NCBI GenBank assembly: GCA_031272455.1
Contig: JAISTS010000110.1
Coordinates: 1 to 45,952, forward strand
Reading direction: 5' to 3'
Length of the DNA stretch: 45,952 bases
DNA from: Tannerella sp.
GTDB lineage: Bacteria > Bacteroidota > Bacteroidia > Bacteroidales > Tannerellaceae
Shown here: piece by piece, positions 28,123 through 41,700 of the stretch
Layout: every line of letters starts with the position of its first letter
How positions within the stretch are numbered: the stretch's first letter is position 1
Position numbers and translations under genes: made by a program
The notes under the pieces: model-generated
Told to the model about the DNA's origin: nothing
The model's input: the letters and a program-made list of their open reading frames with translations, nothing else
Databases searched by the model: none

Positions 28123-28159
28123 CAAAAAAAGCGGGAAAGAACAGAGCGTCCTTTCCCGC
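28123..28159 (-). terminator. Rho-independent terminator of the ribokinase-SusCD operon
   Basis: GCGGGAAAG (28131-28139) pairs perfectly with CTTTCCCGC (28151-28159) around an 11-base loop. On the minus strand the stem is followed by seven T. This marks the end of the long operon whose last gene stops at 28187. Confidence 0.88.
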
Positions 28160-28186: not shown

Positions 28187-29062
28187 TTACTTCACATAAT
28201 CGGCAGCTTTCAGGAAGTCAGCACTTTGCTTCACATCTTGCTCAGGCGTACCGATATAACGTTCGACTTCAACATACCAGTCTTTGACGCCGATTTCATA
28301 CGCCGTATCAAAGATAGGTTTGAAATTCATATAACCGCTGGCGCCGATAGCCTCTTCGTCCTTGATATGCAGGACTTTGATGCGGTTAGGATATTTCTTC
28401 ATATATGCGACAGGATCGCCGCCGCCTTTCTGACACCAGTAAACGTCGTTCTCGAACAGCACGTGGTCGGGGCTGGTGTTTTCGAGAAGCAGGTCATAGA
28501 CGGGCACTCCGTCAATTTTTTCCGTAAACTCGAAGTTATGGTTATGATACCCGAATTTGACGCTTGCGCCGAGCGTGATAAGACCGATCTGGCTGAAATA
28601 GTCGCCATAGCGTTTCACGTTGTCGAGCGTTGCGCCTTCGCCCATCAGCGGCGCCATCGGCATAATCATGTACTTCATTCCGGCTGCTACGTGAGCTTCG
28701 AGAGCCGTTTGCCACCAAGCCATATCGGCGTCGCGGTTGTCCGACAATGTGCGGCTCAGATGCGAGCTGGATAGCCTCATTCCCAAGTCTTCAACGATTT
28801 TCCTAAATTCTGCCGGAGCAAGACCGTAAAACTGTCCAGCGTTATAATTGGCAGTTTCAAGGTCAGTGTAGCCCATTTTGGCAACGATTTCGAGGATGGG
28901 GCGAATGCCTTTTTCCTGAATGTCATCGCGCAGGGAATAGAGCTGGAGACCGATATATTTGGCAGGGGCTGCTTCGCCGCACGAAGACAGCAGTCGAGGC
29001 ATCATAACTCCGCCTGCCATTAACATTGATGCTTTCTTGATAAAATCACGTCTGTTTTGCAT
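28187..29062 (-). CDS. Exported sugar isomerase/epimerase-like TIM-barrel protein (Tat-type, lipoprotein)
   Basis: The 291-residue protein starts 'MQNRRDFIKKASMLM', a twin-arginine signal, and has a lipobox-like LSSC near residue 28, so it is probably a periplasmic lipoprotein. The mature part is an AP-endonuclease-2/xylose-isomerase-like TIM barrel: 'IGLQLYSLRDD', 'MGYTDLETANY', 'KFGYHNHNFEF', 'FENDVYWCQKGG' and 'VLHIKDEE', with metal-binding His, Asp and Glu as expected. Related exported proteins act on sugars or keto-sugars. A phosphosugar substrate is unlikely outside the cytoplasm. The longer upstream start is rejected because it would bury the Tat signal. It is the last gene of the ribokinase-SusCD operon. 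Confidence 0.85.
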   Translation of the reverse strand: MQNRRDFIKKASMLMAGGVMMPRLLSSCGEAAPAKYIGLQLYSLRDDIQEKGIRPILEIVAKMGYTDLETANYNAGQFYGLAPAEFRKIVEDLGMRLSSSHLSRTLSDNRDADMAWWQTALEAHVAAGMKYMIMPMAPLMGEGATLDNVKRYGDYFSQIGLITLGASVKFGYHNHNFEFTEKIDGVPVYDLLLENTSPDHVLFENDVYWCQKGGGDPVAYMKKYPNRIKVLHIKDEEAIGASGYMNFKPIFDTAYEIGVKDWYVEVERYIGTPEQDVKQSADFLKAADYVK

Positions 29063-29143
29063 AAAAATTTTTTTTAATGGTAAAATATTTTGCGGCAAAA
29101 GTAATGATTTTTTTTTAATCACATCATTTTCCGAAAAAAAATA

Positions 29144-30145
29144 TTATGCTCCGGCATAAATCAGGAAACCCAAACCGACGACAAACAGGACAAACATACC
29201 GATATTTAGCCAGTTGGAAATCGACGGAGCGCCCTTAAATTCTTTCCAAATAAGGATGCCCCACAGGGCTGATACCAGCGTCGCGCCCTGCCCAAGTCCG
29301 TAGGATATGGCTGCGCCGGCTTTCTCGGAAGCTATCATACTGAACGACTGACCGATACACCAGATGACGCCGCCAAGTATGCCAACAAGATGGGTGATCG
29401 GTTTGCCTTTGAAATAGCCGCTGATACTCACGGGATTGCCTTCGACCGGACGTTTCATCGCGACGGTGTTGAAGATGAAATTGCTTGCCAGCACTCCGAG
29501 CGCAAAGATGACCACCGCCGTGTAGGGCGTCAGCGTGCCCGCCGCCGGATGAGCGAAGTTGTTCAAATCTATCGCCGCAGCCACGAAACGATAGAAAAAT
29601 GCCATTATCACACCGGCAGCGATACATATCAGTATGCCGCGTGTGGACACTTTTTTTGTTCCGACAAGCGCTTTCTTGTAAGCCAGACCGTTGAGCAGGA
29701 TGGCTACGACAATCAGCGCCACGCCCGTGAAGATATACAGCGGTTCGCCTTTCGCCGCGCCGAAATAGTTGACCAACACGCCCAGCACCAACGCCAGCCC
29801 AATGCCGACAGGAAAAGCGACCGACAATCCGCAGATAGCAATAGCCGCCGCAAGCAGTATGTTCGCCGCGTTGAAGATAATGCCGCCGAGGAAAGCGCTG
29901 CCAAGATTCTGCCAGTCAGCCTGTTGCAGGTCGGCAAGGAACGGACGCCCCTCAGCGCCGATGCTACCCAGCGTGAATGCCGAAATAAGTGCAAAAAGCA
30001 GTACGCCGATGACGTAGTCCCAGTAGAAAAATTCATACCTCCACGTCTTTGCCGCCAACTTCTGAGTATTACCCCACGACCCCCAGCAAAGCATCGTTAC
30101 GACACAGAACATTACGGCTAACGAATAATTTTGTACGATAAACAT
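29144..30145 (-). CDS. DMT-superfamily permease, GRP/RhaT/ureide-permease type
   Basis: The 333-residue protein is almost wholly hydrophobic with about ten membrane helices. 'LCWGSWGNTQKL', 'FYWDYVIGVL' and 'FTLGSIG' near the N-terminus, and 'ISYGLGQGATLVSALWGILIWKEF' near the C-terminus, resemble the glucose/ribose porter (GRP) and RhaT branch. The first block also recalls plant ureide permeases, which carry allantoin and nucleobases. It would bring the small product released in the periplasm (a sugar such as ribose, or a base) into the cytoplasm. It is 34 bases after the second ADP-ribosylglycohydrolase gene in the same operon. The substrate is not proven. Confidence 0.82.
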   Translation of the reverse strand: MFIVQNYSLAVMFCVVTMLCWGSWGNTQKLAAKTWRYEFFYWDYVIGVLLFALISAFTLGSIGAEGRPFLADLQQADWQNLGSAFLGGIIFNAANILLAAAIAICGLSVAFPVGIGLALVLGVLVNYFGAAKGEPLYIFTGVALIVVAILLNGLAYKKALVGTKKVSTRGILICIAAGVIMAFFYRFVAAAIDLNNFAHPAAGTLTPYTAVVIFALGVLASNFIFNTVAMKRPVEGNPVSISGYFKGKPITHLVGILGGVIWCIGQSFSMIASEKAGAAISYGLGQGATLVSALWGILIWKEFKGAPSISNWLNIGMFVLFVVGLGFLIYAGA

Positions 30146-30179
30146 AGTTTTTTGATATTAATAATTAGTACTCGAAATT

Positions 30180-31865
30180 TCAGACAATAGCGACTTCAGC
30201 CCAATAGCCTGCTTCCCATTGCCAATCTGTCGCTTTGTTCTCCAGCTCAACGAAAACATTATCACCTGCAAACGGCGTCAAGTCGAAATTAACTGCCAGC
30301 CAGCCGTCTTTGCCGACAGTATCTTTGCTGACGGTTACAGTTTTCTGCACAGAGCCATTTATACGAATGACAAGTTCCCAATCGCCACCGTCGTGATTAC
30401 TGACAAGCATCTTTAGCGCAGTTTTTTTGTTTTTGGAGATATTAGTTACGTTAATGAGCTTGCACGGCGTTTGTCGATCGAGCGGATGAGTCATCAGAAC
30501 GCCGTTCTTCCCACGGTACGATTCGCGATATCCGGGTTGCATATCGTTTCCGCAATCAGAAACTCTCCATCCATCAAACAGTTTACTTACAGCTTCCTGT
30601 ATATCTCGAAAACTTTTATGTTTGATTTTCGACATCTCCTCTTCGGTAAACTTACTGTCAGCAATCTGTTCGGGTTCCCAACTGAACACGAGAGGACTGG
30701 GCACAGGAGTTTTAACCGGAATCACGAACACATCTTCTCCGTCAACAGTTTCTATTCTTCCGCCTTCGCGAACGATATATTCACGAGCCAGCTTTTCACA
30801 AACGTCAAGCAGAGCCGGAAAATTGTATGCGGTATGCGAAAAAACTTTTTCATTGTCCAGTTTTTCGATGAATCGTGCAGGAAGTTTGGTCGTGCCGAGT
30901 GTGGTGAACAGTACACCTGCAGCGTTTGATGGATTGCAGTCGGAATCCTGTCCGCAACGAGTAGAAATAATGATTGTCTGGTCGAGGTCTTTGTTGCCGT
31001 ATAGCATACCGATAAGAATGTAGGCGCCATTGATTTTCACATCAATACCGCCGTTTGAGCATTTCTGATATTCGGGATCTTCTCGATATTTCGCCTGACA
31101 TTTTTTCCATGTGGCTTCCCAATCGTTGGGATTTTCCTTATACCAAGCAACGACATCGCTTACCATTTCGGCATACTGACATCCGGCTGGAATACACTCT
31201 AATCCGGCATCAATGATTTTTAAGAGGTCGTCCTCAAAAAACGCTTCGGCATACATGCCACCAATAAATTGTCCGGCATACATGCCATCGCTGTAATTCA
31301 TAAGCCTGCCAAATTTCTCGCCTAATGCGATAGCCACCTGCGGCATACCCGGGGCAATCAGCCCCGAGTAGTCCGCTTCTATCTGATAATCAATATCATT
31401 GGGACATTTGTTGAATTGCGGATGACTGCAATCGGGAGGCGCTATTCCGGCTCGAAGATTATTACGACCGGCTGCATTGGCACACCAGAGCGGGTATTCA
31501 CTGTTAGCAAAGTCAATCCCAGCCTGACGAATAGACACATCGGGTCCGTATTCTTCCAAAGTGCGGAGGAACGTCATTTCGGTATAGAGGTCATCCTGAC
31601 CGAAAGCGTCGTTAATCATATCCGGCGTCCATACTGGCATTTTGTCGAGCGGAATAATCTCGTCGCGCCAGCGAAATTCCGTAGGTCCGCCCCAGCAAAC
31701 ACCGGCAATCTGCCCAAGCCAGCCGGCTTTCATTTTGTCGCGATAATCGCTGACTTTCAGCCGTCGGAATTTGCCACTGTCGGAACATCCTGACATACAG
31801 GCAATAAAAACGACACACAATAGTGTGAGTACATTCAGATTGATTTCCTTTTTCATAATCTTCAT
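30180..31865 (-). CDS. ADP-ribosylglycohydrolase-family lipoprotein with C-terminal beta domain
   Basis: The 561-residue protein has a lipoprotein signal (Cys27 in 'CMSGC'). Residues 35-400 form the DraG-like all-helical hydrolase: 'GGPTEF' (59-64), the metal motif 'QDDLYTEM' (90-97), 'NDIDYQIEADYSG' (156-168) and 'RCGQDSDCNPSNAAG' (303-317), which corresponds to the Mg-binding GxDxDT region. A beta-sandwich of about 110 residues follows at the C-terminus and may bind ligand. The canonical family removes ADP-ribose from proteins or splits ADP-ribose-like N- or O-ribosides. An exported, membrane-anchored form should act on external substrates. It lies 12 bases after susD. Confidence 0.85.
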   Translation of the reverse strand: MKIMKKEINLNVLTLLCVVFIACMSGCSDSGKFRRLKVSDYRDKMKAGWLGQIAGVCWGGPTEFRWRDEIIPLDKMPVWTPDMINDAFGQDDLYTEMTFLRTLEEYGPDVSIRQAGIDFANSEYPLWCANAAGRNNLRAGIAPPDCSHPQFNKCPNDIDYQIEADYSGLIAPGMPQVAIALGEKFGRLMNYSDGMYAGQFIGGMYAEAFFEDDLLKIIDAGLECIPAGCQYAEMVSDVVAWYKENPNDWEATWKKCQAKYREDPEYQKCSNGGIDVKINGAYILIGMLYGNKDLDQTIIISTRCGQDSDCNPSNAAGVLFTTLGTTKLPARFIEKLDNEKVFSHTAYNFPALLDVCEKLAREYIVREGGRIETVDGEDVFVIPVKTPVPSPLVFSWEPEQIADSKFTEEEMSKIKHKSFRDIQEAVSKLFDGWRVSDCGNDMQPGYRESYRGKNGVLMTHPLDRQTPCKLINVTNISKNKKTALKMLVSNHDGGDWELVIRINGSVQKTVTVSKDTVGKDGWLAVNFDLTPFAGDNVFVELENKATDWQWEAGYWAEVAIV

Positions 31866-31877
31866 TTATTGATACTG

Positions 31878-33464
31878 TTAATAACCGGGATTTTGCGACA
31901 GGTTGGGATTGAGGGTTATCTCGTTGAATGGTATGGGCCAGAGATAGTTTCTTGACGGATTAAATTCTTTCACATAACCGGATAATTCCACTGTGGCAAG
32001 CGAGCCGCCAGTACCTTCATACGTCATACCTTTGACTGTTCCGGGTATAACTGCTTCGCAGATTTTCCAGCGTCGGATGTCATACAGGCGCAGTCCTTCG
32101 CAAGCCAATTCAACCATTCGTTCGCGACGGACGATTTCGCGCAATTCTGCCTGATCTGTCGTCGTTACGGCAGGCATCTTGACGTCGGCGCGATTGCGAA
32201 TTTGATTAATGGCATCGGTTACCGAAGCGTCAATTGATGCTCCGCCAAGCTCAATACATGCTTCTGCATACGTCAACAATACTTCGGCATAGCGCAGATA
32301 CGCCAGACTAACGCCGCAGTTCCACGGATTGGAATAATCGGAAAAGCTGACATATTTCTTGAAATACCAGCCTGTTGGCGTAACGTTTTCTGCCGAGATG
32401 GTAATATCGTCGCCCGTACCGCTGCCCGGCAGTGTATTTAGCGTATTGCCATCAGGCAGCTGGTCGCCGGTTACGAAGATAGTATAGCCAAGTCGCGGGT
32501 CGCGGTCTTTATACGGGTTCTTCGGGTCGAAACCGCTGTTAGGATTATCAATAGGCAGACCTGTCGTCTTCATCAGGTATGCATCCACGAGTGGTTTTGT
32601 CGGCACCAACTGGCACTGCTGCGTGTAGAGGCTGTTAGGCGTATAGAATGCAAAAATCGAATGTGCGTTGATGTTTTGCGCATATTGACGGGCAAACATA
32701 ATTTCAGACACGCCATCAGCTGCATAATCGAACAGTTCGGGATACGAATCGTGCAATTTATAAGCATTAAGATCTATTACAGCTTTGGCTGCTGTGCGTG
32801 CATCCTGATAACGTCCGGAATATAACATTGCACGGGCTTTAAGTCCGAGCGCTACGCCTTTGGTAACACGCCCGTGTTGAGACTGCTCGACAGGCAGGTC
32901 ATCTGCTGCGGCAGTCAACTCCTGTGCTATGAAATCCCATATCGAACTTGCAGAATCCCTTGTTACGGCTTTTGCGTCGTCTATTGTCAACGTTGCAGTA
33001 ATTAAGGGCACATCACCGTATAGCATCACAAGATTGATAAACGAGAATGCACGCAATGTTTTTGCTTCGGCTACAAGGCGCGACTTCAGAGTCCCGTCAA
33101 TATCTTCAACCAAATCAATGTTTTCGAGGAATGAGTTTACCGCAGCAATAATGGTGTAATAATAAGACCATTCGCTGGCAGCAACATTGCTGCTGGCATT
33201 ATGCGTATTTTTCTCAATCGTCGATTCGTCGCGCCATTGCAAAACGAAATGTGCAATGTCGGTATAGCCATCCATACAGGTATAACGCCACTGACCTCCT
33301 AATATGGAGTAAATTCCGTTGACGGCATATTCGGCGTCCTGCTCTGTTTTCCAAAACAATTCGCTTGCCAACCTGTCCTTAGGGATGGTATTCAGTAAAC
33401 TTTCGCTACAGGAAGAAAAGATAAGCGCAATAAGGCTTATGCAGATATATCTATAAGTTTTCAT
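31878..33464 (-). CDS. SusD/RagB-family outer-membrane lipoprotein
   Basis: The 528-residue lipoprotein has a lipobox 'FSSC' (Cys19) and the SusD signature that follows it ('LLNTIPKDRL', 'FWKTEQDAEYAVNGIYSIL'). The C-terminal SusD segments are present ('ERMVELACEGLRLYDIRRWK', 'YLWPIPFNEITLNPNLSQNPGY'). It is the surface lid that binds ligand and passes it to SusC. It starts 11 bases after the susC stop. The pair is embedded between two ADP-ribosylglycohydrolase genes rather than glycoside hydrolases. This suggests that the ligand is a ribose-containing molecule and not a classic polysaccharide. Confidence 0.96.
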   Translation of the reverse strand: MKTYRYICISLIALIFSSCSESLLNTIPKDRLASELFWKTEQDAEYAVNGIYSILGGQWRYTCMDGYTDIAHFVLQWRDESTIEKNTHNASSNVAASEWSYYYTIIAAVNSFLENIDLVEDIDGTLKSRLVAEAKTLRAFSFINLVMLYGDVPLITATLTIDDAKAVTRDSASSIWDFIAQELTAAADDLPVEQSQHGRVTKGVALGLKARAMLYSGRYQDARTAAKAVIDLNAYKLHDSYPELFDYAADGVSEIMFARQYAQNINAHSIFAFYTPNSLYTQQCQLVPTKPLVDAYLMKTTGLPIDNPNSGFDPKNPYKDRDPRLGYTIFVTGDQLPDGNTLNTLPGSGTGDDITISAENVTPTGWYFKKYVSFSDYSNPWNCGVSLAYLRYAEVLLTYAEACIELGGASIDASVTDAINQIRNRADVKMPAVTTTDQAELREIVRRERMVELACEGLRLYDIRRWKICEAVIPGTVKGMTYEGTGGSLATVELSGYVKEFNPSRNYLWPIPFNEITLNPNLSQNPGY

Positions 33465-33475
33465 CGTTTTGTAAT

Positions 33476-36400
33476 TTAAAAATTAATATTCAGTCCTACT
33501 GTTGTAACAGAAGTTTGCGGGAAACTGCTTTCCTGACTTCGACCCTCCATTTCAGGGTCGATATCATATTTGTTCAGTTCAGAGAACGTCAGCAGGTTTG
33601 TTGCAGAGACATATACGTTGATGCTGCCGATTTTCATCATGTTACAGAAACTTTTCGGTATATCGTACGACAGGCGTAAGGTCTTAAGCCGCAGATAACT
33701 GCCATTTAGCATTGAGAAATCGGATATTTGTGCATTCTTCATCGTATATTTCGTTGGGCGCGGATACTTGGCGTCGGTATGTTCGGGTGTCCAGTAATCC
33801 GACCAGACCTTATGTGCAAATCCACCCCAGATGCCATGTTCAAGGATAGCGCCGGTCATCAGTTTGTCTGACCCGGCTACACCCTGCCAAAAGAGGTCGA
33901 GCCTTAAGTTCTTCCAAGTAACACCCATATTTGACGAAAATGTCCAATCAGGTAATTCGCTGCCGAAAATAACATAGTCGTCAGGCGTCAGCTCGCCGTC
34001 ATTATTCTGGTCAACATACTTGATGTCGCCCGGACCTACTGATCCGTCCCATTTGGCATAACCGTCAACTTCAGCCTGAGTCTGGAAAAATCCATCGGTT
34101 TCAAAGCCATAATATGAGTTAATAGGCTTACCCTCAGTGGTTATAGTACGGTAGTCGCTGTTTCCATAAGCGGAGATATAAGGACCTGTACCAGCGAGAT
34201 CAATGACTTCATTTTTGTTATAGTTAGCATTGAGCGTTACGTCTAATTTAAAGTCGCCGAATGTCTGTCGTGTGCCGAGCAAAAACTCAAAACCGCGATT
34301 TTCAACGATACCGGCATTTTGGTTTGTTGCCGAAAGACCGATGACGGTAGGTATTGGCATTGCCAGCAAAATATCGCTCGTCCGTTTCTTGTAGTAATCA
34401 ACCGACAAGTTCCATTTACTGTCGAACATATAGGCGTCAATACCAAAGTTCAACTGTGTTGTGGTTTCCCACGAAATATCTTCGCTGACCATGCTGGTCT
34501 GTCGGTATCCGGTTGCAAGAGAGCCGTTTAATACATAATTACTTTGGTTATACGTCTTCATAAATGAATATAATCCGACTTGCTGGCTTCCCACTTTACC
34601 CCAAGAGCCTCTCAATTTCAGTTCATTGACTGTAGTTTTAAGCGGCTCGTAAAACGCCTCGTTCGAGATGCGCCATCCTGCAGAGAAAGACGGGAACCAG
34701 CCGTACTGGTGCCCTTTTGCAAAACGCGAAGATCCGTCTCGACGCAAATTGGCTTCTAACAGATAGCGACCGTCGAAATCATAATTTACACGCCCGAATA
34801 AAGAACGCAGTCCCCATTCGGAATTGCCGCCTTCAGCCGATTGAGTAGCATCGTCGGCGCCAAGAGAAAGTGCCTGCAGCTCGTTATTATAGAAACTCTG
34901 ACGATAGCCTTCCACCCAGTCGCTGACATAATGTATTTCGGAATAACCAAGTATTCCGCTTAAAACGTGTTTGCCAAAAGAGTTGTTATACACAGCCTGC
35001 AAGTCGATACCATCTTCCTGCGACTTGCTCCTGTAGTCGTCCATGCTGTTAATCGCGTTGAATGTCCGGCGCTCAGGATGCAATTTGTCGGTAAAATCAT
35101 ATTTGTTGTTGAAATTGGTATAATTTTCCGAATTAATTTGAGAAGAATACTGAGCACTCAGCTTTAGCGATTTAATAAGCTGATAATCAGCCCTAAATAT
35201 ACCAATAATTGCTGTACGCTTTGAACTGGACAATCCCATTTCTTTGGCATTAATAAGCGGACTGTAGCTGTCAACCGACAAACCGTAAGAGCCGTCGCTA
35301 TAATACGGCACTCCCCACTGACTGTTTTGCCACATACGATAGTATGATTCCCATTCATTTATAGGCGCTTTCCTGTCGGTAAAACGGACAGTTACATTGG
35401 ATGTGAATGTGAGTTTGTTGCTGATTTTGTAATCAGTCTTTGCCCGCATTTCAGAAATATTGAATTTATAATTGGGCAAAACGCCATCTTCGTTCATATA
35501 GCGGTACGAAACGCGATTAAGGATTTTTTCCGTTCCGCCGTCGAGCGTGATGGTATGACTGTGCTGAGGAGCAAGTTTGAACATCGCGTCATGCCAAACA
35601 TTAGGTTCGGGATAATTATCCGGGTCTTTGGCGTGATTTGATGTCCACTGCTGGATATATTCATCTGTATAGAATTGATATCCGTAAGTGTTCATGTACG
35701 CGGCATTTTGATGGTTCATATACGTTATGGCATCCATGTGTTCAGGGTTATTGTTAGAACGGGCATAGCCCAGATAACCATTGTACGACACCGTCAACCT
35801 GCCTTCTTTTGGCGCTTTTGTATTGACGAGGATAACTCCGGCGGCTGCTCTTGACCCGTAAATTGCCGCCGAAGCCGCATCTTTGAGAACTGATACCGAT
35901 TCAATATCAACGGGATTAATACGCGACAGATCACCCGGAACACCATCAACAAGAATCAAGGGACTGTTGTCGTTGAGCGAAGTGATTCCGCGAATACGTG
36001 TCGTGTAACTTTCACTTCCCGGAGCGCCGCCACGGTCAATAATAGTTAATCCCGGCAGTTTGCCTTGCATCGCCTGTGTGATGTTTGTCGAATTGCCTTC
36101 CGAAAGGTTTTGGGAATCAATGCTGCTGATAGCATTTGTTACGCTTAACTTGCGCTGTATGCCATAACCGACAACAACAATGTCATCCAGAGTCTTTGCA
36201 TCCTCTAACATCTTGATTGTTAGGGGTTTACCCCCCCCCGCTAATGCGCTGATTTCCTGCGTGTTATAGCCAATATAGGATATTTGCAGGACAGCTCCAT
36301 TTTGTACGTTAATCGAGAACTTACCTTCGGTATCTGTAACAGTACCGTTAGTTGTTCCCTTTTCAAGAACGTTGGCTCCAATAACGGGTTCACCGCTGTT

Positions 36401-36547
36401 GTCAACAACCGTTCCGGTTACTATATTCCCCTGTGCAGCTACTCCGCAGACAATGCACACCAACAGCATAATGATGTTTATGCAGCGCATTATTGTTCGT
36501 GCATGGGAACGAGACGAAACATGATTAGATAAATTAATGTTTTCCAT
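33476..36547 (-). CDS. SusC/RagA-family TonB-dependent transporter with a poly-G tract
   Basis: The 1023-residue protein has a signal peptide, a carboxypeptidase-D-like domain (about 43-118, 'VTGTVVDNSGEPVIGANVLEKG'), the TonB-box region 'LDDIVVVGYG', a plug domain (about 135-240) and a 22-strand barrel ending '...TTVGLNINF'. It should import the ligand captured by SusD through the outer membrane. ATG 36547 gives a long N-region before the hydrophobic segment. A start at the internal Met20 (36490) is also possible. Codons for residues 103-106 contain nine consecutive G (36231-36239), which could slip and shift the frame. It starts 36 bases after the ADP-ribosylglycohydrolase gene upstream. 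Confidence 0.95.
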   Translation of the reverse strand: MENINLSNHVSSRSHARTIMRCINIIMLLVCIVCGVAAQGNIVTGTVVDNSGEPVIGANVLEKGTTNGTVTDTEGKFSINVQNGAVLQISYIGYNTQEISALAGGGKPLTIKMLEDAKTLDDIVVVGYGIQRKLSVTNAISSIDSQNLSEGNSTNITQAMQGKLPGLTIIDRGGAPGSESYTTRIRGITSLNDNSPLILVDGVPGDLSRINPVDIESVSVLKDAASAAIYGSRAAAGVILVNTKAPKEGRLTVSYNGYLGYARSNNNPEHMDAITYMNHQNAAYMNTYGYQFYTDEYIQQWTSNHAKDPDNYPEPNVWHDAMFKLAPQHSHTITLDGGTEKILNRVSYRYMNEDGVLPNYKFNISEMRAKTDYKISNKLTFTSNVTVRFTDRKAPINEWESYYRMWQNSQWGVPYYSDGSYGLSVDSYSPLINAKEMGLSSSKRTAIIGIFRADYQLIKSLKLSAQYSSQINSENYTNFNNKYDFTDKLHPERRTFNAINSMDDYRSKSQEDGIDLQAVYNNSFGKHVLSGILGYSEIHYVSDWVEGYRQSFYNNELQALSLGADDATQSAEGGNSEWGLRSLFGRVNYDFDGRYLLEANLRRDGSSRFAKGHQYGWFPSFSAGWRISNEAFYEPLKTTVNELKLRGSWGKVGSQQVGLYSFMKTYNQSNYVLNGSLATGYRQTSMVSEDISWETTTQLNFGIDAYMFDSKWNLSVDYYKKRTSDILLAMPIPTVIGLSATNQNAGIVENRGFEFLLGTRQTFGDFKLDVTLNANYNKNEVIDLAGTGPYISAYGNSDYRTITTEGKPINSYYGFETDGFFQTQAEVDGYAKWDGSVGPGDIKYVDQNNDGELTPDDYVIFGSELPDWTFSSNMGVTWKNLRLDLFWQGVAGSDKLMTGAILEHGIWGGFAHKVWSDYWTPEHTDAKYPRPTKYTMKNAQISDFSMLNGSYLRLKTLRLSYDIPKSFCNMMKIGSINVYVSATNLLTFSELNKYDIDPEMEGRSQESSFPQTSVTTVGLNINF
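36231..36239 (-). repeat. Homopolymer G9 tract inside susC
   Basis: Nine C on the plus strand (nine G in the coding strand) encode part of 'LAGGGKP' just after the carboxypeptidase-like domain. Gain or loss of one G would cause an early stop and an off state. A nearby GGGG/CCCC pair (36223-36226 and 36231-36234) could form a small hairpin. The present length leaves the gene in frame. Confidence 0.85.
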
Positions 36548-36583
36548 ACGATTATTGTTTTAATTTGAAATAAATTGTAAATT

Positions 36584-38173
36584 TCAATGATGCACCACAC
36601 CGGCAGGCGCGTCTGAATAGATGACAGCGTTGCTGAAATTGATGCTGATATTGTCCACAGGATTGAGCCACTTGAAGGTAACTGTGTGTTTACCTTTGGG
36701 CAGCTGATATTTCCAGAACAGGTCGTGGCGACGCAAGTGGTATCTGGCAGGCAGGTCGACCGATTCGGCAAGGGCGCCGTCGATATACATTTCGGCGTGT
36801 GCTACGTAGCTGTTGTCGTCGTTAGAGCCAAAACGGGCATTTGCGCCTGTCGATCGGACACCGCCCATAAAGACTACGCCTGTACCGTCGAATGTTATTG
36901 CATCAATATCTTTGATATTCTTGTTGATACGTCGCAATTCGACCGGATGATGTCCTTCAAAGCCTTTTTCGTAACGCACGGGCGTCGGCTGCTGACAGGC
37001 TATCGTAACGTCGGAAGCGCCGACCGTACCGCCATTGCGTTCAATCATTTGCAGAGCCTGTTTGTAGCTCATCTCATACGTTTTGTTGAGCGAAATTGTC
37101 GTATAGGCGAAATCCATATCTTCGACATCGACAATTTCTTTTTTCCAGTAATCGGGTATCTTGCTGTAACCCAGAATAGTGCCGAGTATGCCTCCCGACG
37201 ATGCGGGGTTGCAGTCGGAGTCCTGTCCGCAGCGGGTCGAGATATCGATAGTCTTAAAGAAATCGCCTTCGCCATAGAGCAGTCCGATGATGATATAGGC
37301 GCTGTTGATCACCGCGTCGATATTGAACGGCACAAACACGCCGTCGGGGCAGCCGATGTCCTGACTCCATTTTTTCTCACATTCAGCCCAGGTCTGTTTC
37401 CAGTCGTCGGGATACTGTTTATGCCAGCTGATGACGTCGCTCATACATTTATAATATACGCTCTGTTCGGGGATGGTTTTCAGCGCTTCGCTGACGACAA
37501 ACTCAATGTCGTCCGACACAAAAGCCAGAGCATACATAGCTCCGACATAGACGCCGCCGTACCAGCCGTCGCCATAGTTCATTATATGACCGATCTTGTC
37601 CGACACTTCCGACGCGGCATTAGGCATTCCGGGCGACATAATTCCGGCATAGTCAGCCTCGATCTGATAGTCAATATCGTCTGAATGAGGATTATAGAGC
37701 CAGTGCCCCGACTTGGGCGGCATAATCCCGTGCAGGATATTGTACCTTGCCGCCTGATTGGCATGCCAGAGAGCATAACCTGCTGTGGCAAAGGCGACTG
37801 CAAACGAATCGACCGGCGCGTCCAAGCCAAGACGGTCGAAGACGTCAACGAAGGTCAGATCCATATAAACGTCGTCATACAGACCGGGCGTATTGGTCAT
37901 CCACTGCCGGATATAGCCTTCCGACCACGGGATGGTTACGTAGTCCTGAATCATCGTTCCGGGGAACTTAAACTCGGTCGGACCGCCGTAGGTGCAGCCA
38001 ATGGTCTGTCCCGCCCAAGCGCCCTTAATTTTGTCTAACAGCACATCTTTGGTAAGTGTTACTGTTTCAGGGATTTTAGTGCCGGAATTTCCATTCGCCG
38101 ACTGCTGTGTACACGAGAAAAATACACCTGCCATTAGAGCAGGCATCAAGATGCTTAAAATTCTTTTTTTCAT
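36584..38173 (-). CDS. ADP-ribosylglycohydrolase-family lipoprotein (first of two in operon)
   Basis: The 529-residue protein has a lipobox 'FFSC' (Cys21) and then the DraG-like domain (about 40-390). It shares key blocks with the protein at 30180-31865: 'GGPTEF' (63-68), 'YDDVYMDLTF' (99-108), 'DDIDYQIEADYAG' (165-177) and 'RCGQDSDCNPASSGG' (314-328). The last 130 residues are beta-rich ('VVFMGGVRSTGANARFG', 'HTVTFKWLNPVDNISINF') and look like a carbohydrate- or ligand-binding module, different from the tail of the other copy. Substrate is inferred to be an ADP-ribosyl or ribosyl compound outside the cytoplasm. It begins 27 bases after the ribokinase stop. Confidence 0.85.
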   Translation of the reverse strand: MKKRILSILMPALMAGVFFSCTQQSANGNSGTKIPETVTLTKDVLLDKIKGAWAGQTIGCTYGGPTEFKFPGTMIQDYVTIPWSEGYIRQWMTNTPGLYDDVYMDLTFVDVFDRLGLDAPVDSFAVAFATAGYALWHANQAARYNILHGIMPPKSGHWLYNPHSDDIDYQIEADYAGIMSPGMPNAASEVSDKIGHIMNYGDGWYGGVYVGAMYALAFVSDDIEFVVSEALKTIPEQSVYYKCMSDVISWHKQYPDDWKQTWAECEKKWSQDIGCPDGVFVPFNIDAVINSAYIIIGLLYGEGDFFKTIDISTRCGQDSDCNPASSGGILGTILGYSKIPDYWKKEIVDVEDMDFAYTTISLNKTYEMSYKQALQMIERNGGTVGASDVTIACQQPTPVRYEKGFEGHHPVELRRINKNIKDIDAITFDGTGVVFMGGVRSTGANARFGSNDDNSYVAHAEMYIDGALAESVDLPARYHLRRHDLFWKYQLPKGKHTVTFKWLNPVDNISINFSNAVIYSDAPAGVVHH

Positions 38174-38200
38174 GATTTTACAGTTATAATGGTTTAGTAA

Positions 38201-39106
38201 TCAGTATTTTTCAATCTCGTGCCTATAAGGAACAGACGCCTGCGCTCCCATTCGTGTTACGGCGATGGCAGCGGCTTGGCAGGCGAATTTCACCGCGTCG
38301 GCGATGTTTTTGCCTTCGGAAATCCCTACGCACAAGGCGCCGCAGAACGTATCGCCGGCAGCTGTCGTGTCAACAGCCTCAACTTTGACCGCGGGAATTT
38401 CAAAATAATCCGTTCCTTCCTTAACCAAAGCGCCTTTGGCACCGAGCGTAATGATAACAATATCAACACCTTTGGCGCTGATAATATCTGATGCTCGGCG
38501 TGCCGACGACCAGTCTTTGACCGTGATGCCCGACAGCAGTTCAGCCTCCGATTTATTGGGAGTTATAACATACAGATTTTTAAGCAGTTTTGGCGATAGC
38601 ACCTGTGCCGGAGCGGGATTAAGGATAACTTTCACGCCCTTCGATGCCGCTATGTCGGCTGCATATTCGACCGTTGCCATCGGGATTTCGAGCTGCATAA
38701 GCAACAAATCGGCGGCTTCTATCTCAGCGCGCGCCTTTTCGATATCCTGTACCGACAGCGTTCCGTTGGCGCCCGGCGCTACGAGGATGCAGTTTTCGCC
38801 CTTCGCATCGACAGATATAAGCGCCACGCCCGAAGGATTGTCGGCGCTCGAAAAAATATACCGCGTGTCGATGCCCTCAGTTTTGTATAATTCAATGGAT
38901 TGACGCCCGAAAAGGTCGTTGCCCGTTTTCGTGATAAACGACACCTGACCGCCCAGACGAGCTATGGTTACAGCCTGATTCGCCCCTTTGCCGCCGGGGT
39001 TCATCATAAACGTGCCGCCGATAATCGTCTCGCCCGGAACGGGAAGCCGCGATGCCTTAATCACCATATCGGTATTAGAACTGCCTATTACTGCGATTTT
39101 GCTCAT
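38201..39106 (-). CDS. rbsK: Ribokinase (PfkB family)
   Basis: The 301-residue PfkB-fold kinase has 'NPGGKGANQAV' (36-46), the ribokinase sugar-binding glycine motif, and the C-terminal signature 'DTTAAGDTFCGAL' (246-258) with catalytic Asp252. The usual first Gly of GAGD is Ala here (AAGD), a common variation. It phosphorylates ribose (or deoxyribose) at O5 with ATP in the cytoplasm, feeding the pentose phosphate pathway. As the first gene of the operon it is the best clue that the transported product is ribose. A TATTTTTG element lies 27 bases upstream. Confidence 0.92.
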   Translation of the reverse strand: MSKIAVIGSSNTDMVIKASRLPVPGETIIGGTFMMNPGGKGANQAVTIARLGGQVSFITKTGNDLFGRQSIELYKTEGIDTRYIFSSADNPSGVALISVDAKGENCILVAPGANGTLSVQDIEKARAEIEAADLLLMQLEIPMATVEYAADIAASKGVKVILNPAPAQVLSPKLLKNLYVITPNKSEAELLSGITVKDWSSARRASDIISAKGVDIVIITLGAKGALVKEGTDYFEIPAVKVEAVDTTAAGDTFCGALCVGISEGKNIADAVKFACQAAAIAVTRMGAQASVPYRHEIEKY

Positions 39107-39133: not shown

Positions 39134-39141
39134 CAAAAATA
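39134..39141 (-). promoter_or_regulatory. -7 element of the ribokinase-SusCD operon
   Basis: The minus strand reads TATTTTTG, matching TAnnTTTG. A TTTG is present further upstream (39169-39166 on the minus strand) with a 24-base spacer, longer than usual. A weak promoter or one needing an activator is possible. Confidence 0.45.
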
Positions 39142-39271
39142 ATCAGTTAATTATTATCGCGCACGCAAAAAAGTGTCAAAAATGAGAATTTCAACTTACT
39201 AAATATCTCGATAAAAAATTTATTTTCAAACTTATATTTATATGTTTTTTCATAATTACAATATTTTTTCT

Positions 39272-39279
39272 TTACTTTG
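39272..39279 (+). promoter_or_regulatory. Possible -7 element of the helical-protein gene
   Basis: TTACTTTG differs by one base from TAnnTTTG. It lies 19 bases before the ATG at 39299 and downstream of the earlier in-frame ATG at 39242, which supports the later start. Confidence 0.35.
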
Positions 39280-39298
39280 CATTTTAAAACAAAAACTC

Positions 39299-40870
39299 AT
39301 GAAAAAGACTGACGCATTAGTTTTACTCGTTTCTTCGCTAACGAAAGCAGAGAAAAAGAATTTTAGCTCGCACTGTAAAAAATCGGACTATTCTGCACTG
39401 TTCAGATTGATCGATAAAGACCATAATGTTTCGGCTAAAGAACTGAAACAGAAATTTAAACAGAAGCATCAAGGTGCCAATTTTGATGCGACCGTAACGT
39501 ATCTGTACAAAGTACTGCTCGACAGTTTGAGCGATTTGCGTCGCGACCGCGACCGATTTTACTGTCTGTTTGATAACATCCTTAAAGCAAGGATTTTATT
39601 TGAAAAGTCCCTGTTTGAAGAAGCGCTCGATTTGCTTAGCAGCGTAAAAAAAGAGGCGCTTGTAGTGGAAAATTTTTATGCAATGCTCTATGCTTCGCGC
39701 CTCGAACTCGAATATTTGATGTTCCTCAATTTTGCTAACATTACCGAAACGGCGCTCGTCAATAAACATTTCCATATCAATGAGATACAGAAAAAAATGC
39801 AGAAAATCAGCGAACAGTCAGCCCTGTACGAAATGCTAAAATATAGACTGATGCATAAGGGATATATTCATTCACAGAAACAGAAAAACACATTCAACGA
39901 CTTGGTAATTAGCGAAATAAATATCAGCTCGTCGAACAAGGACAGTTTTGAGATAAAAAAGCTACACCTGCTGTTCCAGTCGAATTATCTGATTGGCATA
40001 GGCGACCACGAATCGGCTTCAAATTCGTTACGTGAACTAAATCAGCTTTTTGAGAATAATAGACATCTTTGGAACGACCCGCCGTTTTATTACGTTTCTA
40101 TGCTCGAAGGCATCCTCGACAATCTGCGAAGCATCGGCAGCTACGACGAAATGCCGTATTATATCGGGAGGCTAAAAAATATTCGGAATGTACCTGCCGG
40201 ATTTCAGGCGCATGTCTCTGTGCTTATTTTTCTGTACGAACTGTTTCCTTATCTTGACCGAGGTGATTTTCGTTTAGCTAAGCAACTTGTTGATAAACAC
40301 AAAAATAGACTGTTTGCAGATATGATTAACCTGAATCTGATGAGGCGGGCTGAACTTTCGCTATGTCTTTCAATTATTCACCTCGGACTTGGCGAATATA
40401 AAAAAGCGCAAAGTATTTTAATCAGCGAAATAATACACGATTCAAGAATTTATTCCCTGCCGCTATACCGCACTATCAGGCTAATCAGTCTTATAATCCA
40501 TTACGAACTTGAGCACAATGATATTATCGAACAGACAAGCCGCTCGATAAAACGTGGGATATCGAAAACGAAAGACGCCTATCGTGTTGAATATCTGATG
40601 CTTGACTTCCTGAATAAAAGCGGCGTCGCACTGCATGGTGCAGCCAACAGAAAAGAGCTGTTGAGGAAATTGTCGCCCGAAATGTCCGGTATTAGAAACA
40701 ATATCTTTGAGCGTCAAATACTTAAAAACTTCGATTTCATTGCGTGGATAGAATCTAAACTGACTTTAGTCCCGCTTTCGGAAATACTTGGCAACAAGTT
40801 TGCTCATTTTTCCAGCGTAAACGATTTGCGACCGATGAGGTTGCCGTCGGCGAAAATATCTGCACGGTAG
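39299..40870 (+). CDS. Helical (TPR-like) Bacteroidota protein of unknown function
   Basis: The 523-residue protein has no signal peptide or membrane helix and is predicted by eye to be almost wholly alpha-helical. It begins 'KKTDALVLLVSSLTKAEKKNFSSHCKKSDYSALFRLID', a pattern I associate with a large Bacteroidota family of uncharacterised TPR-like proteins ('SLxKxEKxxF'). Repeats such as 'FEEALDLLSSVKKEALV' and 'GEYKKAQSILISEIIH' look like helical hairpins. I do not know a function. It is divergent from the ribokinase operon (192-base gap) and might be linked to its control, but there is no DNA-binding motif. Its last 67 bases overlap the convergent coiled-coil gene. Confidence 0.8.
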   Translation: MKKTDALVLLVSSLTKAEKKNFSSHCKKSDYSALFRLIDKDHNVSAKELKQKFKQKHQGANFDATVTYLYKVLLDSLSDLRRDRDRFYCLFDNILKARILFEKSLFEEALDLLSSVKKEALVVENFYAMLYASRLELEYLMFLNFANITETALVNKHFHINEIQKKMQKISEQSALYEMLKYRLMHKGYIHSQKQKNTFNDLVISEINISSSNKDSFEIKKLHLLFQSNYLIGIGDHESASNSLRELNQLFENNRHLWNDPPFYYVSMLEGILDNLRSIGSYDEMPYYIGRLKNIRNVPAGFQAHVSVLIFLYELFPYLDRGDFRLAKQLVDKHKNRLFADMINLNLMRRAELSLCLSIIHLGLGEYKKAQSILISEIIHDSRIYSLPLYRTIRLISLIIHYELEHNDIIEQTSRSIKRGISKTKDAYRVEYLMLDFLNKSGVALHGAANRKELLRKLSPEMSGIRNNIFERQILKNFDFIAWIESKLTLVPLSEILGNKFAHFSSVNDLRPMRLPSAKISAR

Positions 40871-41700
40871 GTGCCGGGCGAGAGGTATTCTTCTACATCC
40901 CAGTACATTACGACCTGCACTTCTTCGCCGTCGTATTCGATAGTTTTCATCATCGACCAGGCTATCTCCTTGTTTTCAAACGCGAACACTCCCGAATTTG
41001 CTTTGCGCAGGATATCGTCGTCGGGCTTCATAAGTCGCACATACAAAGCCTTTTCGCCTATCGGGGCGGTGATATTCTTTGCTATCGAGAATTGCAGCAT
41101 CAGCTGTGCTATATTGTTGATTTTCTTAGCGCTTTTGCCTTTCGACGTTAGCGGCGAGACCTGTATGGCGGTAGCGTCGAGGCGACTTGCGAGGTTCACG
41201 CGCTCGGTCAGTTTTTCCTTTTCCTTAGTCAGCTGGGCGGCTGTCGTAGTCGCCTGACGGTATTTTTGCGTTACCTGCCGATTTTCGGTTTTCAGTTTTT
41301 CGTTTTCGGTGTTAAGCGAGTCGATTTGAGCCACATAGCCGCGCATAATTTTTCGCAGCGACTCGAGTTCTTTCTTTAACTCGTTAATACGGCGGGCGTT
41401 GGTGGACTTTACAGTGCGCAACTCCTCCATCAGCCGCTGTACGCGCATCTGCTCGGTAGTCAGCAGAGCGACGAGCGAATCGTTGCCGACGCTAAACTTA
41501 TATCCCTCATATTGAAGCGATAACTCCTCGTATTCGTCCGTCAGCGATTCTTTTTCGAGCGCAAACACCTCTTCCATATCCGCTACGCGCTGCTCCTGAT
41601 AGTAGATGTAATACACAAAAGCGCCCGCCAGCAGCAGGAGTACAACTATCGCCGTGATTATCAGCGATTTTATCTTTATGTTTTTATCTTCGGTACCCAT
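40804..41700 (-). CDS. Membrane-anchored coiled-coil protein of unknown function
   Basis: The 298-residue protein has a short basic N-terminus, one membrane helix (about 12-35, 'SLIITAIVVLLLLAGAFVYYIYY'), a long coiled coil (about 38-170, rich in Glu, Leu and Lys heptads) and a C-terminal beta-rich domain (about 185-298, 'IAQLMLQFSIAKNITAPIGEKALYVRL', 'GTYRADIFADGNLIGRKSFTL'). Most of the protein should face the periplasm. I recognise it only as a conserved-hypothetical Bacteroidota type. Its start region faces guaA divergently. A TTTG...TATCTTTG promoter lies upstream. The 3' end overlaps the gene at 39299-40870 by 67 bases. Confidence 0.82.
   Translation of the reverse strand: MGTEDKNIKIKSLIITAIVVLLLLAGAFVYYIYYQEQRVADMEEVFALEKESLTDEYEELSLQYEGYKFSVGNDSLVALLTTEQMRVQRLMEELRTVKSTNARRINELKKELESLRKIMRGYVAQIDSLNTENEKLKTENRQVTQKYRQATTTAAQLTKEKEKLTERVNLASRLDATAIQVSPLTSKGKSAKKINNIAQLMLQFSIAKNITAPIGEKALYVRLMKPDDDILRKANSGVFAFENKEIAWSMMKTIEYDGEEVQVVMYWDVEEYLSPGTYRADIFADGNLIGRKSFTLEK

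What the first reader, a model, noticed from the sequence alone, without database searches (positions are those of the whole stretch)
28187..39106. Seven-gene operon with two exported ADP-ribosylglycohydrolases around a SusCD pair and a ribokinase
Seen: rbsK, DraG-like lipoprotein, susC, susD, second DraG-like lipoprotein, DMT permease and Tat-type TIM-barrel lipoprotein lie on one strand with gaps of 11-81 bases. A TAnnTTTG box is at the front and a perfect-stem terminator at the end. Known: SusCD pairs usually go with glycoside hydrolases, and Bacteroides ribose-scavenging loci contain ribokinases, SusCD and nucleoside- or ADP-ribose-directed hydrolases. Inferred: this is a scavenging system for ribose-containing molecules (ADP-ribose, NAD breakdown products, nucleosides or ADP-ribosylated proteins) that cleaves them outside the cytoplasm, imports the product and phosphorylates ribose. 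Two different C-terminal binding domains suggest two substrates or two linkage types.
Basis: partly seen in the sequence, partly recalled or inferred. Interest (0 to 1): 0.75.

Follow-up and report, generated by a model that had tools for sequence, protein, structure and literature searches.

The report
Ribose-scavenging locus with two DraG-like enzymes
This is a mosaic version of the known Bacteroidota ribose-utilization locus, set between two genes that are neighbours in relatives, in which two exported enzymes of the ADP-ribosyl-hydrolase fold probably free ribose from a still unknown molecule.

Summary
The genes, strand, gaps (11-81 bases), promoter-like box and terminator reported are real. 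The unit is not quite the one described. That makes this a member of the known ribose utilization system (RUS). The last gene, the TIM-barrel lipoprotein, is not part of it: in 13 of 20 relatives examined it sits directly beside the gene now found beyond rusR, and the RUS lies between the two. So the system is rusR plus six genes: rbsK, draA, susC, susD, draB, rusT. It is mosaic: RusR and RbsK fall in one RUS lineage, RusT in another (trees); DraB goes with the first, DraA and SusCD with the second, by identity only. DraG-type genes recur in such loci: 64 of 93 draA/draB operons hold rbsK or rusT. Five order-level loci carry three DraG-type genes in a SusC/ribokinase/permease operon, with two further ORFs (esterases in the one checked). 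Acidic active-site residues are invariant, but threonine metal ligands (recalled) are replaced, so an ADP-ribosyl substrate is unproven.

The parts
39242..40870 (+). rusR, divergent regulator gene of the BT2802 family; likely start ATG 39299; last 26 codons (from 40790) lie beyond the family model and run mostly in the antisense of the neighbouring gene
   Evidence: NF058569 578.1 bits over cut-off 550, protein residues 20-516; RusR tree places it with same-genus RUS loci, 100/99
38201..39106 (-). rbsK, ribokinase
   Evidence: TIGR02152 371.5 bits over 299.65; only match over cut-off in the genome
36584..38173 (-). draA, predicted exported lipoprotein of the ADP-ribosylglycohydrolase family; E67, D100, D101, D318, D320 invariant
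   Evidence: PF03747 124.3 bits; invariant columns in 45 sequences
33476..36547 (-). susC-type TonB-dependent transporter
   Evidence: TIGR04056 922 bits; 70-74% identical to SusC of loci L003, L007, L033, L053
31878..33464 (-). susD-type lipoprotein
   Evidence: PF07980 168 bits
30180..31865 (-). draB, second DraG-type lipoprotein; E63, D91, D92, D307, D309 invariant; rare C-terminal domain from about residue 400
   Evidence: PF03747 85.8 bits; C-terminal domain matched only in the window's genome among 393 and 395 sampled genomes, and in G085 of the family
29144..30145 (-). rusT, permease of the ureide-permease/sugar-transport kind, presumed ribose importer
   Evidence: PF07168 84.2 bits, PF06800 38.5 bits; next to rbsK/draA in many loci
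28187..29062 (-). TIM-barrel (PF01261) Tat-type lipoprotein: NOT part of the RUS; neighbour of 40804-41700 in relatives
   Evidence: gene order in 13 of 20 relatives; own TAnnTTTG box at 29096-29103, such a box also in 10 of the 13 gaps of relatives
40804..41700 (-). flanking gene; in 13 of 20 relatives the TIM-barrel gene follows it directly
39134..39141 (-). TAnnTTTG promoter-like box in front of rbsK
28131..28159 (-). intrinsic-terminator-like hairpin after the TIM-barrel gene (13 pairs, T run)

Best explanation
The locus is a ribose utilization system (RUS): rusR facing rbsK-draA-susC-susD-draB-rusT. It lies between two genes that are neighbours in relatives and combines parts of two RUS lineages. 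Working model: SusCD takes a ribose-bearing molecule across the outer membrane (inferred). The lipoproteins DraA and DraB, most likely in the periplasm, hydrolyse ribosyl bonds with a metal-dependent ADP-ribosylhydrolase-type site (acidic residues shown, activity inferred). RusT imports free ribose (inferred from family and linkage; for B. thetaiotaomicron RusT this is a proposed role in print). RbsK makes ribose-5-phosphate (family level). RusR controls the operon (from its family). A nucleoside hydrolase, part of many sister loci, is absent here but encoded elsewhere in the genome, in one case fused to a glycerophosphodiesterase domain.
For: RusR over its curated cut-off. Ribokinase over cut-off and the only such match in the genome. 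Linkage: of 79 loci with a DraG protein, 49 have at least 3.5 kb on both sides, and 31 of 49 hold rbsK or rusT within 3.5 kb; 64 of 93 draA/draB operons hold rbsK or rusT, 44 hold both, 27 a nucleoside hydrolase (this set includes regions chosen by RusR). In 123 family genomes, 29 of 37 with RusR and 27 of 86 without it hold a DraA/DraB hit, Fisher p 1.5e-6, relatedness not corrected for. Five of 14 order-level stretches (L250-L253, L256) share rusR | rbsK-susC-susD-three draG-two other ORFs-rusT (the susD-position ORF of L253 was not labelled); the two ORFs are esterases in L250, the one checked. Position: the flanking pair is adjacent in 13 of 20 relatives. Mosaic: trees of RbsK, RusT and RusR. 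Location: mean acidic residues at +2 to +6 after a crudely found cysteine 0.20 in 80 of 95 distinct DraA against 1.45 in 22 SusD. RusR/RusT/ribose link in B. thetaiotaomicron: passages of PMC12596196.
Against: 15 of 49 well-flanked loci have none of RbsK, RusT, nucleoside hydrolase or RusR within 3.5 kb (at least one of the 15, L053, has rusR, rbsK and rusT further off), and some draA operons hold fucosidase-, sulfatase- or phosphoesterase-type genes, so draA is not tied to ribose alone. 27 genomes have a DraA/DraB hit without RusR. No nucleoside hydrolase is in this operon, and no pyrophosphatase or phosphatase, so ADP-ribose would not give free ribose with these genes alone. Threonine metal ligands (recalled) are replaced. 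No structure could be predicted. Release of ribose and RusT specificity are untested.
Confidence: 0.75

Rival explanations
1. ADP-ribose route: DraA and DraB are true ADP-ribosyl hydrolases that free ADP-ribose from proteins, poly(ADP-ribose) or nucleic acids; other enzymes then strip it to ribose.
For: PF03747 membership and invariant acidic residues; solved-structure relatives found by sequence include MJ1187 (best, 3.4e-8), 6dre, ARH3 and DraG chains (singly, DraA reaches only 6dre at 0.0014, and DraB nothing at E 1).
Against: Replaced threonine ligands and the changed GDxxG motif (roles recalled); no pyrophosphatase, phosphatase or nucleosidase in the operon; 21 bits against 490 for the ADP-ribosylarginine hydrolase model.
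Confidence: 0.25
2. Glycan route: DraA and DraB are ribofuranosidases that cut ribofuranose from acylated bacterial or plant glycans, as in a polysaccharide utilization locus.
For: SusCD pair; two esterases in a three-DraG RUS locus (L250); esterase-type genes in 4, fucosidase-type in 4 and sulfatase-type in 3 of 93 draA/draB operons.
Against: No other glycoside hydrolase in this operon; many sister loci have rbsK-draA-rusT with no SusCD in the operon (15 of 93 operons hold SusCD).
Confidence: 0.25
3. The TIM-barrel lipoprotein is a functional seventh member (sugar isomerase/epimerase step).
For: Same strand, 81-base gap, no terminator-like site between it and rusT in the scan.
Against: In 13 of 20 relatives it is adjacent to the homologue of the gene at 40804-41700 without a RUS between; matches (paralogues included) occur in 114 of 123 family genomes; none lies within 3.5 kb of the DraG gene in the 79 loci counted; it has its own promoter-like box.
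Confidence: 0.07

Closest known systems
Bacteroides thetaiotaomicron rus locus (RUS; RusR BT2802, BT2803-2809)
   Same: RusR family, ribokinase, SusC/SusD, DMT-type permease. B. thetaiotaomicron content as annotated in passages of PMC10434189 and PMC12596196.
   Different: B. thetaiotaomicron has a nucleoside hydrolase and a DUF4969 protein in the locus; the window has two DraG-type lipoproteins and no nucleoside hydrolase in the operon. The primary paper (Glowacki 2020) is not held; its abstract, recalled, says such systems diversified to access ribose from several substrates.
Parabacteroides/Massilibacteroides RUS loci (L005, L012, L020, L007)
   Same: rusR | rbsK-draA-(nucleoside hydrolase)-rusT; L007 has no nucleoside hydrolase but susC-susD at 70% identity.
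   Different: One draA, no draB; gene order differs.
Same-genus rbsK-draB-rusT loci (L145 of G099, L146 of G085)
   Same: RbsK 73-80%, DraB 75-81%, and in L145 RusR 56%.
   Different: No SusCD in the operon; RusT belongs to the other clade; L145 DraB lacks the C-terminal domain.
DraG / ARH3 / Tri1 ADP-ribosylhydrolases
   Same: Family PF03747 and acidic metal-site residues.
   Different: Predicted exported lipoproteins with extra C-terminal regions and altered motifs; activity unknown.

Membership tests
Ribose utilization system (RUS) | BT2802-family regulator RusR | tested here: met
   578.1 bits over 550
Ribose utilization system (RUS) | ribokinase | tested here: met
   371.5 bits over 299.65
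Ribose utilization system (RUS) | SusC/SusD pair | tested here: met
Ribose utilization system (RUS) | RusT-type permease | tested here: inconclusive
   Right permease kind and recurrent linkage; not compared directly with BT2809
Ribose utilization system (RUS) | nucleoside hydrolase in the locus (B. thetaiotaomicron type; not in every RUS locus seen here) | tested here: not met
   none in the operon; two PF01156 matches elsewhere in the genome, one a fusion with GDPD
Ribose utilization system (RUS) | induction by ribose or ribosides | not testable with these tools
   needs expression data
ADP-ribosylglycohydrolase (DraG/ARH) enzymes | PF03747 domain over the curated cut-off | tested here: met
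   124.3 and 85.8 bits over 26.2
ADP-ribosylglycohydrolase (DraG/ARH) enzymes | acidic metal/catalytic residues | tested here: met
   invariant in 45 and 32 sequences
ADP-ribosylglycohydrolase (DraG/ARH) enzymes | threonine (or serine) metal ligands beside the DD and DxD motifs (recalled) | tested here: not met
   Tyr and Cys in DraA (Y99, C321), Gln and Cys in DraB at these places by sequence; no structure
ADP-ribosylglycohydrolase (DraG/ARH) enzymes | ADP-ribosyl hydrolase activity | not testable with these tools
   needs assay

The most novel reading that the evidence does not exclude
The exported DraG-type proteins of RUS loci are a distinct enzyme group that has left ADP-ribosyl chemistry: periplasmic ribofuranosidases, perhaps alpha-specific, that complement the beta-specific nucleoside hydrolases of sister loci and act on acylated ribosides or ribofuranose glycans. 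The window's mosaic locus would then join two specificities in one operon.
Probability: 0.3. Interest if true: 0.65.

Novelty: new variant of a known kind. Interest (0 to 1): 0.4.

Why it matters
It ties a widespread group of predicted exported DraG-family proteins, for which my searches found no known substrate, to ribose catabolism by regulator, kinase and permease linkage. It gives small, testable gene sets (rbsK-draA-rusT, rbsK-draB-rusT, three-DraG operons) for finding the ribose source. It also shows that RUS loci are built from exchangeable parts.

Tried and rejected
Rejected: the TIM-barrel gene as an operon member. Rejected as unproven: named binding domains at the C-termini; DraA's had no Pfam match at E 0.5, and DraB's only one sub-threshold match.

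The primary RUS paper is not held. Three searches for RUS papers and seven for DraG-type proteins in ribose, SusCD or glycan settings listed no paper devoted to this gene set. I saw listings only, plus passages of four papers; two listed papers that hold the word ADP-ribosylglycohydrolase were not opened. That is no proof that it is not in print; the 2020 RUS paper may well show such loci.

Errors corrected: the TIM-barrel query was out of frame and was corrected from then on. The script ended in an error after its counts were printed; the remaining check was redone. The signal-peptide count held duplicate proteins; it was redone on distinct ones.

Biases: counts mix the best 80 of 559 relatives with 40 regions chosen mainly by RusR or DraB hits; contig ends cut some operons. 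One locus of the 80 gave no DraG ORF and is not in the 79. The 20 genomes were picked among the better matches, not at random. The genome is 85.5% complete, so absences in it are provisional. The DraA genome set includes G099, whose only hit is DraB. In the RbsK tree the bootstrap had not fully settled and several rows have long branches. DraA, DraB, SusC and SusD were not put in trees; their affinity rests on identity values.
Full report
What is there. Seven minus-strand ORFs lie at 28187-39106 as reported: ribokinase, two PF03747 proteins with lipoprotein-like signals, SusC, SusD, a permease of the ureide-permease/sugar-transport kind and a PF01261 TIM-barrel protein. With the TIM-barrel gene started at ATG 29062, gaps are 11-81 bases. 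The terminator-like hairpin at 28159-28131 has 13 pairs and a T run. The box in front of rbsK (39134-39141) is one of 54 TAnnTTTG matches in the window, 27.35 being expected.

The missed gene. ORF 39242-40870, divergent from rbsK, matches NCBIfam NF058569 'BT2802 family ribose utilization protein' at 578.1 bits, cut-off 550. The same family is found in 37 of 123 genomes of the bacterial family, 27 of them over the cut-off, and in 34 of 295 genomes drawn from the order, 9 over the cut-off. It identifies the locus as a ribose utilization system (RUS). In B. thetaiotaomicron the RusR-controlled genes BT2803-2809 are required for ribose utilization and their activity is highest on ribose (passages of PMC12596196), and the locus is annotated with ribokinase, SusC, SusD, DUF4969, nucleoside hydrolase and DMT permease (passage of PMC10434189). 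The primary paper (Glowacki 2020) is not held.

The gene that does not belong. I took regions around relatives of the TIM-barrel gene from 20 genomes picked among the better matches. In 13 of 20 it lies directly next to the homologue of the gene at 40804-41700, with no RUS between, and in 10 of these 13 guaA follows, as in the window. In 2 of 20 both genes are present but several kb apart; in 5 of 20 the neighbour is not in the stretch taken (in one of these the gene begins about 350 bases from the contig end). Eleven of the 13 are from the same genus; two of these genomes (G099, G084) carry a RUS elsewhere. In the window the RUS, about 11.6 kb, lies between the stop codon of the 40804 gene, whose C-terminus matches that of relatives, and a TAnnTTTG box before the TIM-barrel gene (29096-29103); such a box is present in 10 of the 13 gaps of relatives. 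RusR ends 26 codons beyond its family model, mostly in the antisense of the 40804 gene. Gain here, rather than loss in the others, is inferred. Read-through into the TIM-barrel gene is possible, since the scan shows no terminator before it.

A mosaic. The RbsK tree puts the window in a 12-row group (98/94) with loci of G085, G099 and G084 (bootstrap not fully settled). The RusR tree puts it with G099, G084 and G085 (100/99), apart from a 31-row group (100/99) of other RUS loci. The RusT tree puts it instead in a 37-row group (100/100) that excludes the RusT of L145, L146 and L147. That 37-row group also holds same-genus rows (G083; and L016, which is the record of G105), so both lineages occur in the genus. 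By identity, DraB goes with the first set (75-81%), and DraA (75%) and SusC/SusD (70-74%) with the second. No trees were made for these four.

DraG-type genes as RUS parts. Of 79 loci with a DraG protein, 49 have 3.5 kb or more on both sides: rbsK or rusT lies within 3.5 kb in 31 of 49, nucleoside hydrolase in 16, RusR in 9, SusC in 6, and none of RbsK, RusT, nucleoside hydrolase or RusR in 15. One of the 15, L053, has these genes further off. In a wider, partly RusR-selected set, 64 of 93 draA/draB operons (window excluded) hold rbsK or rusT, 44 both, 27 a nucleoside hydrolase, 15 a SusCD pair, and 5 hold more than one DraG gene. Across 123 genomes, 29 of 37 with RusR and 27 of 86 without it have a DraA/DraB hit, p 1.5e-6, with no correction for relatedness. 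Among 14 stretches from the order outside the family, five (L250-L253, L256) share rusR | rbsK-susC-susD-three DraG-type genes-two unlabelled ORFs-rusT (in L253 the susD-position ORF was not labelled). Pfam was run on L250 only: the two ORFs are PF00756 esterases and the three DraG-type proteins are PF03747. So two exported DraG proteins in a RUS are not unique.

The enzymes. In 45 DraA relatives E67, D100, D101, D318 and D320 are invariant; in 32 sequences including DraB and three longer relatives, E63, D91, D92, D307 and D309 are. Sequence alignments with solved chains place these on the acidic positions of the family: the first motifs with 2woe (DraG) and 1t5j (MJ1187), the last also with 6dre and ARH3. 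At the neighbouring positions, where classical members have Thr or Ser (roles recalled), DraA has Tyr and Cys, and the GDxxG motif is GCTYG. The site looks active but changed; substrate cannot be read from this. DraB's C-terminal domain was matched only in the window's own genome among 393 genomes sampled from the order and 395 from the phylum, occurs in G085, and is absent from the G099 homologue, which stops before it.

Where they act. Using the first cysteine after residue 12 as a crude lipobox, the mean number of acidic residues at +2 to +6 is 0.20 in 80 of 95 distinct DraA, 0.24 in 34 of 36 nucleoside hydrolases and 1.45 in 22 of 22 SusD (the rest had no such cysteine). Since acidic residues there mark surface export in Bacteroides (recalled), the DraG proteins are probably periplasmic. 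DraB is less clear.

The rest of the genome. This ribokinase is the only one of 7 matching stretches over the ribokinase cut-off. Two PF01156 matches lie on other contigs; one is a 610-aa protein joining nucleoside hydrolase and glycerophosphodiesterase domains.

Verdict. A new variant of a known system: a mosaic RUS with two DraG-type lipoproteins.

Noticed in passing
L248 8484-10316 (G000:C9, window's own genome): A 610-aa predicted lipoprotein fuses a nucleoside hydrolase (PF01156) to a glycerophosphodiester phosphodiesterase (PF03009); it may supply the nucleoside hydrolase missing from the window's RUS.
   Followed up: partly
L250-L253 and L256 (five order-level genomes): A shared operon rusR | rbsK-susC-susD-three DraG-type genes-two unlabelled ORFs-rusT; the two ORFs are PF00756 esterases in L250, the only one checked.
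   Followed up: partly
L036, L037: Three draA genes in tandem after rbsK in Parabacteroides records.
   Followed up: no
L145 5106-6335 (G099): A DraB homologue (81% over 407 residues) that stops before the C-terminal domain, directly before rusT: a natural domain loss or a form without it.
   Followed up: partly
L005, L008, L012, L020, L030 and others: Downstream of Parabacteroides RUS operons the same unlabelled ORFs (about 250, 126 and 311 aa; 12, 11 and 10 copies) recur; not scanned against families, and the shortest and longest look like GtrA-type and glycosyltransferase proteins by eye.
   Followed up: no
window 40790-40870: The rusR frame runs past its family model into the antisense of the neighbouring gene, giving convergent overlapping 3' ends at the presumed junction.
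   Followed up: partly
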